Source of the DNA: Deltaproteobacteria bacterium
GTDB taxonomy: Bacteria > UBA10199 > JADGCS01
Length of the DNA stretch: 64,000 nucleotides
Reading direction: 5' to 3'
Assembly: GCA_015228875.1 (NCBI GenBank)
Contig: JADGCS010000002.1
Span: 1 to 64,000, forward strand
Part shown: one piece after another, positions 50,165 to 57,010 of the stretch
How the letters are laid out: each line of letters begins with the position of its first letter
How positions within the stretch are numbered: the first letter of the stretch is position 1
The notes under the pieces: generated by a model
The model's input: only the letters and a program-made list of their open reading frames with translations
What the model was told of the DNA's origin: nothing
Databases searched by the model: none
Translations under genes and position numbers: made by a program

Positions 50165-52156
50165 ATGCTGGTCGAAGTGTCATTGTCATTTCGCAATAAA
50201 ATTCTGATCTGGCTGTTTGTCTTGTTTGTGGCAACATCTGCGGCATATCTGCCTGCCATCAACAATGATTTTACCAATTGGGATGACCCCACCTATGTGA
50301 CCGCTAACCCCCTGATCCAATCACTTTCCTTAAAGAATATGAGGGACTGTTTTACCGGGTTTGTCATGGGAAATTATCACCCGCTCACAACGCTGTCACT
50401 TGCCCTGGATTATCGCATTGGGGGATTAAATCCCAGACAGTATCATCTGACAAATCTGATCCTGCACTTGTTAAATACCGGGCTTGTGTTTTTTTTGATT
50501 TTTCTGCTGTTTAACAGAAATCTCAACATTGTTGTTGTGGTGTCTTTGCTCTTTGGACTGCACACCATTCATGTTGAGTCCGTTGCGTGGGTGACCGAAC
50601 GCAAGGACGTCCTTTATGCCTTGTTTTATCTTCTCTCGCTGATCTTTTATGTTCAATATCTTGCGGGGAGGAGGTTTTTGTTTTTCTGTCTTTCCCTTGC
50701 GTGTTTTACCCTGTCCCTCTTGTCGAAGGGGCAGGCCGTGACCCTGGCCGCTGTCCTTTTTTTGATTGACTATCATTGGAACGGTTCTTCTCTGTCACGC
50801 AGGCGTGTCTGCAAAAAAATCCCGTTTGTTGTTATCGCCATTTTCTTTGGTGTTGTTTCGCTTATGGGAAGCCGCTCAAGCGGGGCAATTTCTGTTACCA
50901 ATCAAAATAATTTTTTTGAGCAGGTGGCTTTTGCGTGTTTTGGTTTGTGGGGCTATTTTATAAAACTGCTTTTGCCATTAAATTTGTCCGCGTTTTACCC
51001 TTACCCTGACAGGGTGAACGGCCACATACCATGGTTGTTCTGGTGCTCTTTATGGGTACTCCCGGCTCTCGCTGCGACCCTTGTCCTGACCCGCAAGAGG
51101 GCCCCGCAGATCTTTTTTGGACTTGTTTTCTTTTTGATCAACATTGCCCTGATGCTGCAAATTTTTCCCGTTGGCAATGTGATCATGGCGGATCGTTTTG
51201 CCTATATTCCTTCCATTGGTTTTTTTATTGTCGCTGCCTCGGGCCTTGAGACCCTTGCCCTGAGGGGCTTAAGACACAGGTATGTGAGTCGCGTTCTTTT
51301 TGTGGCCTATCTGTTGATGCTGGCTGTGTTGACATTTCACAGGTGTGATATCTGGAAGGACAGCCTCACCTTGTGGGATGATACGATCAATAAACACCCC
51401 AACTCTTTTTTTGTCTTTAACCTGAGGGGACTGGCCAAGGCTATTGAAAAGGACTTTCGCGGGGCCATTAAGGACTACGATCGTGCCATAGAACTTAATC
51501 CTGGGGTTCTCGAAACCTATTACAACAGGGGAAATGCCAGACTAAAAGCGGGTGATGATGCCGGGGCCATCAGCGATTTTGAGACTGTCTTAAAGCTTAA
51601 ACCCGATTACAGTGATGCCGCTGTCAACATGGCCTATGTCTTGATGCGGCAGCGGAGATACAACGAGGCGATTAAAACATACAACTCCCTCGAAAAAAAT
51701 ACGGGGCTGACCGCCGCCCTTTACCTGAGCAGGGGGCTTGCCAAGATAAATAACGCAGATTTTGACGGGGCCATCGAGGATTATAACAGGGCCCTTACAT
51801 CAGACCGCCACAATCCGGAGATTTATTTAAATAGATGTTATGCCTTTCTTAAGACTGCAAACTTCGCTGCTGCGGTCAAAGATTGTGATGAGGTTATTAA
51901 AACCTCACCGGATTACACAGAGGCCTTTTTTTACAGGGGGAGTGCCCTGTTGGGGAGGCATGAATATGAAAGGGCGGTCTCTGATTACACCCGCGTGATT
52001 TTTTTATTGCCGGATTATGAGGGGGTGTACTTTAACAGGGGCATGGCATTGATCAGGCAGGGCAAACACGAGGAAGGCTGCAGAGACCTCGATCTTGCAG
52101 ACAGACGGGGATTTGCATGGGCAAAAGAGGCCCTGATTGATTATTGCGATCGGTAA
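50165..52156 (+). CDS. membrane glycosyltransferase-like protein (TMTC/PMT-type) with C-terminal TPR repeats
   Basis: FTNWDDPTYVTANPLI, NYHPLTTLSLALDYRIGGLNPRQYHLTNLILHLLN; multiple A-x-x-DYDRAIELNP TPR motifs. Confidence 0.85.
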   Translation: MLVEVSLSFRNKILIWLFVLFVATSAAYLPAINNDFTNWDDPTYVTANPLIQSLSLKNMRDCFTGFVMGNYHPLTTLSLALDYRIGGLNPRQYHLTNLILHLLNTGLVFFLIFLLFNRNLNIVVVVSLLFGLHTIHVESVAWVTERKDVLYALFYLLSLIFYVQYLAGRRFLFFCLSLACFTLSLLSKGQAVTLAAVLFLIDYHWNGSSLSRRRVCKKIPFVVIAIFFGVVSLMGSRSSGAISVTNQNNFFEQVAFACFGLWGYFIKLLLPLNLSAFYPYPDRVNGHIPWLFWCSLWVLPALAATLVLTRKRAPQIFFGLVFFLINIALMLQIFPVGNVIMADRFAYIPSIGFFIVAASGLETLALRGLRHRYVSRVLFVAYLLMLAVLTFHRCDIWKDSLTLWDDTINKHPNSFFVFNLRGLAKAIEKDFRGAIKDYDRAIELNPGVLETYYNRGNARLKAGDDAGAISDFETVLKLKPDYSDAAVNMAYVLMRQRRYNEAIKTYNSLEKNTGLTAALYLSRGLAKINNADFDGAIEDYNRALTSDRHNPEIYLNRCYAFLKTANFAAAVKDCDEVIKTSPDYTEAFFYRGSALLGRHEYERAVSDYTRVIFLLPDYEGVYFNRGMALIRQGKHEEGCRDLDLADRRGFAWAKEALIDYCDR

Positions 52157-52160
52157 ATCA

Positions 52161-52670
52161 TCACAACACGTCTCTTCCCATGACTGTTTTTCGGCCGGCT
52201 GCTGTGGCGTGCTCCATGGCTTTAAGACATTCGTCCACAACTTTCTGTGTGAGGGCGTCAATACAGCAGGTGCTTGTGTTGAATCCGCTTTGGTCCTTTA
52301 TTAACTGCTTAACCTTTGACACCACAACCAGTGTGTCTGTTTTAATGGATGCGTAAGAGACCTTGCCCGCGGGTGTTTGCATTGCGGGGGCCGCGCTGAT
52401 AATTTTATTTCGGACCGGTTGTAACGAAGGTTCGTCTTGTTCCAATGCTGATATAAATTCATTTTTTGAAGGGGAAATGTATTCTTCTGCGCAGGATTCC
52501 CTATGGTTTGCAAAACCCAAGTGGGCGTCCCAACAGGCAACCGAGCAGAAGACAAGGCCGGTCCTTTTGTTTCTGCAGGTGCTGACCGAACAGAGTTTGT
52601 AGGGGGTGTTAAACCCGATCTCTTTTTTACAACTGCTGCACTTTTTCCAGTAGGTTATTTCTTGGGCCAT
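52161..52670 (-). CDS. putative zinc-finger/histone-fold fusion protein
   Basis: N-terminal CSSCKKEIGFNTPYKLCSVSTCRNKRTGLVFCSVACWDAHLGFANHRESC; C-terminal LVVVSKVKQLIKDQSGFNTSTCCIDALTQKVVDECLKAMEHATAAGRKTVMGRDVL. Confidence 0.65.
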   Translation of the reverse strand: MAQEITYWKKCSSCKKEIGFNTPYKLCSVSTCRNKRTGLVFCSVACWDAHLGFANHRESCAEEYISPSKNEFISALEQDEPSLQPVRNKIISAAPAMQTPAGKVSYASIKTDTLVVVSKVKQLIKDQSGFNTSTCCIDALTQKVVDECLKAMEHATAAGRKTVMGRDVL

Positions 52671-53094: not shown

Positions 53095-53439
53095 ATGAAA
53101 AACAATCGACTACAAACAATAGAGGGGATGCATTTAGATACCCGATTGCAGGCCGTAGACGCCGAATTTAAGGACTTTCTTGCCGATATCCTCTACAAGA
53201 GGGAATTTGGCCCAGATAAACTCAAAACATTCAGCCCGCTCGATGCGGTGGCAGATTTTGCACAAAAGGGGATCTTGTCCGTAAAAGAGGTCAGTCGTGA
53301 TGAGATGCTTGGTAACAATAACGCATTTAACAAGTTACTGGCAAACATGCTGGCAGAGTGCAAACCGGGTGCCTTGAGTGATGATGATTTAAATCAAATC
53401 ACCGGCATCAATGGCAGGGAGATTCATGCCGGCTTGTAA
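53095..53439 (+). CDS. hypothetical small protein
   Basis: 114-aa ORF with ordinary composition. Confidence 0.6.
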   Translation: MKNNRLQTIEGMHLDTRLQAVDAEFKDFLADILYKREFGPDKLKTFSPLDAVADFAQKGILSVKEVSRDEMLGNNNAFNKLLANMLAECKPGALSDDDLNQITGINGREIHAGL

Positions 53440-53464: not shown

Positions 53465-53547
53465 CAAGTTACTAACTTGACTTTGACGCGGTTGAGTTCC
53501 TCCATTTTGCGAGAAATGCACCCGCGCTCTGTCGACTTTGAAATTCC
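53465..53547 (+). repeat. Family-1 palindromic repeat
   Basis: Near-identical to 36327..36408. Confidence 0.85.
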
Positions 53548-53573
53548 TGTACATAAACATAGAGGGGAAATTA

Positions 53574-54022
53574 TGACAACCATAAGAAAAACAAACATAG
53601 CAAGTGATGCGCGTATAAAAGATTTAATAGAGTCCGGTAATCCAACGGGGGCCTCAACTGTAAGTAACAGCAAAACCCCAGTTATAGACACCGCCACGGT
53701 GAGGGCGGGGCTCTTTCCTATCACCCAGTCCGGAAACAGGACCTACACCAATGCCGCACTTTTTAAAGAGGTTACTTCTGAGCCACGGGCCGCAGATGCT
53801 CACCCCGATCAGATCATGACACTCGCGATGGATGCCTTTGCACAGGGCGCCAGGGCGGCACTGCACATCAGCGAGCCTGTCGCAGAATCACCTATAGAGG
53901 AACCCGAAATCAGCGCGCACGAGCTGATGGCTGGGCTTGCAGGAGAGGGAGACCGCGCTGTGGGTGTGGGTAGTCTTTTCATGGATATGCTTAAGATGGC
54001 AAAGGATTCAGAAATTGCATAA
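53574..54022 (+). CDS. hypothetical protein; start placed after an AGAGGGG ribosome-binding-like site downstream of a repeat
   Basis: MTTIRKTNIASDARIKDLIESGN... Confidence 0.6.
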
Positions 54023-54069
54023 AATCCGTCGATGATTGTATTTTGTGTATGGCTGATGCTTGATATATA

Positions 54070-54152
54070 GGAATTTCAAAGTTGACAGAGCGCGGGTGCA
54101 TACCTCGCATAACGAGGAAACTCAACCGCGTCAAAGTCAAGTTGGTAACTTG
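54070..54152 (-). repeat. Family-1 palindromic repeat
   Basis: GGAATTTCAAAGTTGACAGAGCGCGGGTGCATACCTCGC...GTCAAGTTGGTAACTTG. Confidence 0.85.
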
Positions 54153-56488: not shown

Positions 56489-57010
56489 TCAACCGGCCTT
56501 CTTTTGACAAGGGCTACCATCTAGCCCTTTCTCAAACTCATTTGGCGGCATATAGCCAATCGACGAGTGCAATCGTTTGTCATTGTAGACATCTTCGATA
56601 AAAACAAAAATGTTTTCCACAACGTCTTCAAAATCCTCATATTCCGACAAATAAGACCGCATGACGGAGGTCGGGACACTCAGATCAATGACGCTACGAG
56701 GACAAAGAGCGTTGGTGATATGATGTTGCTCAAGATGTACGCTGTTCTTTGTGCTGGAAAATTCCTTGTCGCCCACCAGCCCTGCTACGTGTACACCTGC
56801 AGCATGCAGGCGCTCCAAACACGGTACAACGTGTTGCGTATCATTCTTTGGCGACCCTTCAACAATATCCCAGTCCACGATGAGCCCGTGCGCTGATTCT
56901 CCCACCAGCATTTGTAATCCAAACTCTGTTTCACTTCCAGCCTTGCCACGATGATAAACCTGTGTATGAGATTCATAGAGAGATTCTTGAGATGGATTTA
57001 CATAAAAGCA
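56489..57010 (-). pseudogene. Chimeric transposase remnant: DDE transposase fragment joined in frame to an IS3-type integrase C-terminus
   Basis: VYHRGKAGSETEFGLQMLVGESAHGLIVDWDIVEGSPKNDTQHVVPCLERLHAAGVHVAGLVGDKEF, then FEDVVENIFVFIEDVYNDKRLHSSIGYMPPNEFE; no intact start. Confidence 0.75.

What the first reader, a model, noticed from the sequence alone, without database searches (positions are those of the whole stretch)
52161..52670. Bacterial zinc-finger/histone-fold fusion protein
The C-terminal ~60 residues (LVVVSKVKQLIKDQSGFNTSTCCIDALTQKVVDECLKAMEHATAAGRKTVMGRDVL) have the layout of a single histone fold. There is a short helix 1, a 'STxxIDAL' loop-1/helix-2 start, a long amphipathic helix 2, an 'A-x-x-x-GRKTV' loop 2, and a final 'xxDV' as in archaeal and Bdellovibrio-type histones. 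The N-terminus carries an eight-plus Cys/His array (CxxC...C...C...FCSVACWDAHLGFANHRESC) resembling MYND/ZZ/HIT-type fingers. A zinc finger joined to a histone fold in a bacterium is unusual and could be a sequence- or protein-directed architectural factor. I recall a zinc-finger 'ZZ histone' class in recent prokaryotic histone surveys, but I could not check membership.
Basis: partly seen in the sequence, partly recalled or inferred. Interest (0 to 1): 0.85.

Follow-up and report, generated by a model that had tools for sequence, protein, structure and literature searches.

The report
Bacterial zinc-finger histone (ZZ histone)
This gene encodes a small bacterial protein that joins a two-zinc finger to a DNA-binding histone fold; it is a clear new member of the already described but experimentally untested 'ZZ histone' class, so it is real but not a new kind of thing.

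Summary
Window 52161-52670, minus strand, is a 169-aa ORF with an N-terminal finger (C11, C14, C27, C32, C42, C46, H50, H56), a disordered linker and a C-terminal single histone fold. A family profile matches the Bdellovibrio histone HBb in the PDB at E=3e-19. AlphaFold2 plus Foldseek also give HBb as the closest structure. Nine of ten HBb DNA-contact residues and the RD clamp are kept, and FtF tetramer residues are absent. Twenty full-length relatives were found in named GTDB genomes and more in the window's phylum, so it is not a chance ORF. The likely mechanism, inferred, is that the histone half dimerises and bends DNA without sequence preference while the finger docks a protein or peptide. 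Not seen in the paper text I searched: a conserved basic-hydrophobic linker motif (RRVV type) and finger-only genes. This is the only histone fold found in its genome, beside three HU/IHF genes. There is a hint, not significant, that its histone half comes from local solo histones. The 'ZZ' name for the finger rests on weak fold similarity. New member of a known kind.

The parts
52161..52670 (-). ZZ histone gene, 169 aa, ATG start; tail-to-tail with the TPR gene, whose stop codon ends at 52156
52437..52670 (-). Finger domain, residues 1-78: zinc ligands C11, C14, C42, C46 (C4 site) and C27, C32, H50, H56 (C2H2 site); closing strand 61-65 and helix 69-77
   Evidence: ligand pairing follows the scheme in PMC11390915, not measured
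52341..52436 (-). Linker, residues 79-110; residues 87-111 are below pLDDT 50
52398..52412 (-). Linker basic-hydrophobic motif, residues 87-91 RNKII (family form RRVV)
   Evidence: strict form in 15 of 22 linkers against 0.2 expected from shuffles
52164..52340 (-). Histone fold, residues 111-169: helix 1 114-128, helix 2 135-157, RKTVMGRD loop 2 at 160-167, very short helix 3

Best explanation
The protein is a ZZ histone. The histone half most likely forms an HBb-like homodimer that binds and bends DNA through the backbone, without sequence preference. The two flexibly tethered zinc fingers of the dimer most likely dock a protein or a peptide end onto that DNA. It would then be a low-abundance chromatin adaptor, with HU/IHF as the bulk nucleoid proteins of this cell. 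Shown here: both domains, the zinc-ligand array, retention of the DNA-contact residues, the flexible linker and its motif. Inferred: dimer formation, zinc loading, DNA bending and the docking role.
For: Profile and fold match to HBb, which is known to bend DNA as a dimer (PMC11317129). HBb contacts S9, K10, K12, K16, N22, S24, K52, T53 and R57 are identical at window positions S118, K119, K121, K125, N131, S133, K161, T162 and R166; only T8 differs (V117). The RD clamp is R160/D167. FtF tetramer residues are not present: positions 154 and 158 are H and A (sequence with the motif spacing). All eight ligands and W8, F41, W47, D48, R57 are invariant. Closest solved finger folds are peptide-binding ZZ domains of p62 and HERC2. 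Three genes consist of the finger alone with no histone downstream, which fits an independent docking role. The genome holds three HU/IHF genes. The B. bacteriovorus ZZ histone is expressed at a low level.
Against: No biochemical data exist for any ZZ histone in the papers I could search. The finger's Foldseek E-values are all above 0.1, and profile comparison with p62 ZZ gives probability 5.7%. [quoted passage not shown] The protein's net charge is only +5, and the histone half's is +1. No gene neighbour is shared across families, so context names no partner.
Confidence: 0.62

Rival explanations
1. The finger binds DNA itself, so that finger and histone together make a site-selective architectural factor or transcription regulator.
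For: The finger and the linker motif carry conserved basic residues (R57 of the finger; RRVV motif). A single-copy gene whose Bdellovibrio homologue is of low abundance fits a regulator better than bulk packaging.
Against: The best fold matches are peptide- or protein-binding ZZ and MYND domains, not DNA-binding fingers. The HBb contacts that are kept are backbone contacts only.
Confidence: 0.17
2. The finger reads basic tails of other histones or N-terminal degrons, as eukaryotic ZZ domains do.
For: Top fold matches are p62 ZZ with N-degron peptides, then HERC2 ZZ with the H3 tail.
Against: No second histone fold was found in this genome (about 95% complete), and the 2024 survey found a second histone in only half of ZZ-histone proteomes and a non-conserved pocket.
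Confidence: 0.1
3. The histone fold serves only as a dimerisation module (as in TAFs or NF-Y-like partners) and the protein does not bind DNA in vivo.
For: Near-neutral histone half (net +1, pI 7.6); low expression of the Bdellovibrio homologue.
Against: Nine of ten HBb DNA-contact residues and the RD clamp are retained, and R160, T162, R166 and D167 are invariant across the family.
Confidence: 0.1

Closest known systems
ZZ histones (Schwab et al. 2024, PMC11390915; e.g. D0LYE7 of Haliangium ochraceum)
   Same: N-terminal finger with C4 and C2H2 sites, C-terminal bacterial-dimer-like histone fold, RKTxxxxD motif; found in deltaproteobacterial-type genomes
   Different: No defining feature differs. 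The histone half resembles two Oligoflexales-type solo histones (56-61% identity) more than the ZZ histones outside its own clade (37-54%), and the genome has no second histone
HBb / Bd0055 bacterial dimer histone (PDB 8cmp, 8fvx, 9ezz)
   Same: Histone fold, 30 of 56 residues identical, DNA-contact residues and RD clamp
   Different: HBb has no finger or linker, has T8 and D49 where this protein has V117 and A158, and is very abundant
Eukaryotic ZZ domains (p62/SQSTM1, HERC2, p300)
   Same: Predicted two-zinc fold; best Foldseek matches, probability up to 0.87
   Different: Different cysteine/histidine spacing, no convincing sequence-profile similarity, Foldseek E above 0.1
MYND fingers (ZMYND11)
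   Same: FCSxxC...H spacing resembles MYND (from memory); second group in the fold search
   Different: Eighth ligand is His rather than Cys; lower fold scores than ZZ

Membership tests
ZZ histones | N-terminal finger with C4 site and C2H2 site | tested here: met
   Eight ligands present and invariant in 22 sequences, matching the scheme; zinc binding itself not measured
ZZ histones | C-terminal bacterial-dimer-like alpha3 histone fold with truncated helix 3 | tested here: met
   HBb first by profile and by fold; helix 3 is three residues in the model
ZZ histones | RxTxxxxD motif in loop 2 | tested here: met
   R160 K161 T162 ... D167; R160, T162, D167 invariant and K161 nearly invariant
ZZ histones | Finger has a genuine ZZ-type fold | tested here: inconclusive
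   p62 and HERC2 ZZ rank high but with E above 0.1; hhalign against p62 ZZ probability 5.7%; no Pfam ZZ match in 22 members
Bacterial dimer histones (HBb type) | Stand-alone histone fold without other domains | tested here: not met
   Finger and linker of about 110 residues precede the fold
Face-to-face (FtF) histones | Dimer-dimer residues R and N (six and two positions before the RxT arginine) | tested here: not met
   H154 and A158 at these positions (sequence; motif positions)
Functional histone | Dimer formation and DNA binding | not testable with these tools

The most novel reading that the evidence does not exclude
The ZZ histones of this phylum arose by a second joining event, the finger being attached to a local solo histone, and the finger together with the linker motif is a docking module whose finger also exists as a free microprotein; it would recruit a still unknown partner to histone-bent DNA in a bacterium that has no other histone.
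Probability: 0.2. Interest if true: 0.6.

Novelty: new member of a known kind. Interest (0 to 1): 0.3.

Why it matters
ZZ histones are a rare case of a bacterial histone with an added zinc-binding domain, and I found no experiment on one. A genome in which the ZZ histone seems to be the sole histone would separate its role from that of bulk histones. The linker motif and the finger-only genes give concrete handles for finding what the finger binds.

Tried and rejected
Pfam, PADLOC and PHROGs on the single protein gave nothing, so no defence or phage role is indicated. No viral contig or plasmid relative. Conserved gene neighbourhood: apart from the ZZ histone itself (and other frames over it), shared clusters came mainly from a few myxococcal/Kofleriaceae-type loci and three near-identical loci, and the window's flanks share nothing with the phylum relatives except the ZZ histone itself. 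Independent origin of this clade's histone half: trees place it among solo histones, but holding all ZZ histones together is not rejected (p-AU 0.11 and 0.09), and only about 66 columns are available. A finger tree was largely unresolved. The idea that the finger reads other histones' tails in this cell was set aside because no other histone fold was found.

Full report
Observation. The stretch 52161-52670 on the minus strand encodes 169 residues from an ATG. The gene lies tail to tail with a membrane TPR protein whose stop ends at 52156, and about 420 bases separate its start from the next likely gene. It looks like a single-gene unit; expression could not be tested.

Is it a real protein? 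A scan of GTDB genomes found 27 relatives. Twenty carry finger and histone fold in one reading frame, from Bdellovibrionota, Myxococcota, Desulfobacterota and other deltaproteobacterial-type genomes; L026 is a 21st with the same layout, whose match was split by its long linker. In an alignment of 22 sequences the invariant columns are the eight zinc ligands plus W8, V29, S30, F41, V44, W47, D48 and R57 in the finger, and S118, L140, A155, R160, T162, V163, R166 and D167 in the histone half. Chance cannot give this.

Histone half. Pfam sees nothing in the window protein alone, and NCBIfam's archaeal histone model scores E=5e-4, below its cut-off. A profile of the family hits HBb of Bdellovibrio at 3e-19, then Leptospira HLp and Thermococcus HTkC (names). 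The AlphaFold2 model (mean pLDDT 81; about 87-96 over the histone helices) has helices at 114-128 and 135-157 and a three-residue third helix. Foldseek again returns HBb first (TM by target 0.77, 51-54% identity over 56-59 columns). Of the ten DNA contacts listed for HBb in PMC11317129, nine are identical here, and the RD clamp is present.

Finger half. The ligands are C11, C14, C27, C32, C42, C46, H50, H56, the same order as in the published ZZ-histone scheme. A model of the finger alone (pLDDT 83) matches p62 and HERC2 ZZ domains best and MYND domains next, all with E above 0.1. No sequence relative was found in the PDB, and hhalign against p62 ZZ is not convincing. Calling it ZZ-like is fair; calling it a proven ZZ domain is not.

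Linker. Residues 87-111 are predicted to be disordered. Yet most linkers carry one short basic-hydrophobic motif: the strict form [RK][RK][VILM][VI] occurs in 15 of 22 linkers against 0.2 expected from shuffled linkers (maximum 3 in 2000 runs). Four further sequences that the script skipped also show RRVV or RRLV by eye in the same output. The window has RNKII at 87-91, a looser form. Shared ancestry is not controlled for, but the linkers otherwise share little. The passages of the 2024 survey that I read do not mention such a motif; its supplementary logo could not be read.

Distribution. In the window's own genome (about 95% complete) this is the only histone fold found and the only finger, next to three HU/IHF-family genes. 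Among the 47 genomes held for its phylum, 41 have a histone fold but only 7 the finger. Of these 7, four have a further histone-fold match; in G011 one of its two matches starts at a contig end and is probably the C-terminus of its own ZZ histone. In G027 the gene looks decayed: a stop follows the finger and only the end of the histone fold remains. In G019 a ZZ-type histone half lacks the finger.

Finger-only genes. L021, L023 and L027 end with a stop right after the finger, and the three forward frames downstream encode no histone. L023 and L027 share their downstream gene and are close to each other, so they count as one event. L021 may be a separate one.

Evolution. In a tree of histone halves, this phylum's ZZ histones sit among solo histones and away from the other ZZ histones (also with an FtF outgroup and two long rows removed). 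A single clade of all ZZ histones is not rejected (p 0.11 and 0.09). This is a hint of a second fusion, or of finger loss in the solo histones, no more.

How it most likely works. An HBb-like homodimer bends DNA without sequence preference, and two flexibly held fingers offer docking surfaces for another protein. DNA-contact conservation is shown; dimerisation, zinc, bending and the partner are inferred. Gene neighbourhood gives no partner.

Comparison with the known. The class was named in 2024 (PMC11390915), and its Bdellovibrio member is, by inference, the second and longer histone Bd3044 mentioned in PMC10627809. A literature search found only two papers that use the term ZZ histone, and I saw no functional study. 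The finding is a new member of a known kind.

Noticed in passing
window 53465-53557 (-) and 54060-54152 (+): Two inverted copies (87%) of a 93-bp element lie around ORF 53477-54022. The element occurs about 40 times in this genome, mostly at 88-97% identity (only 40 of 393 candidate places were scored), folds better than shuffles as single-stranded DNA (z -3.9) and has no Rfam match: a REP- or MITE-like dispersed repeat.
   Followed up: partly
L021:127-357, L023:1824-2060, L027:2730-2981: Stand-alone finger genes (about 70-80 aa) that lack the histone half; in L023 and L027 they sit upstream of what looks like a membrane pyrophosphatase gene (my reading of the sequence).
   Followed up: partly
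L061 (G019:C23, about 39.8-40.1 kb) and L074:1-260 (G027:C1): One finger-less protein with a ZZ-type histone half, and one apparently decayed ZZ histone that keeps the finger but not most of the histone fold.
   Followed up: partly
window 53095-53439 (+) and 53477-54022 (+): Two ORFs upstream of the rRNA methyltransferase and ffh genes have no Pfam match.
   Followed up: no
window 56489-56911 (-): ORF with a C-terminus that looks like an IS3-type transposase/integrase tail, by eye; probably a transposon remnant.
   Followed up: no
literature: A review (PMC11318664) states that deletion of both Bd0055 and Bd3044 is lethal, but the passages I read in the study it cites (PMC10627809) report failed deletion for bd0055 only.
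   Followed up: partly
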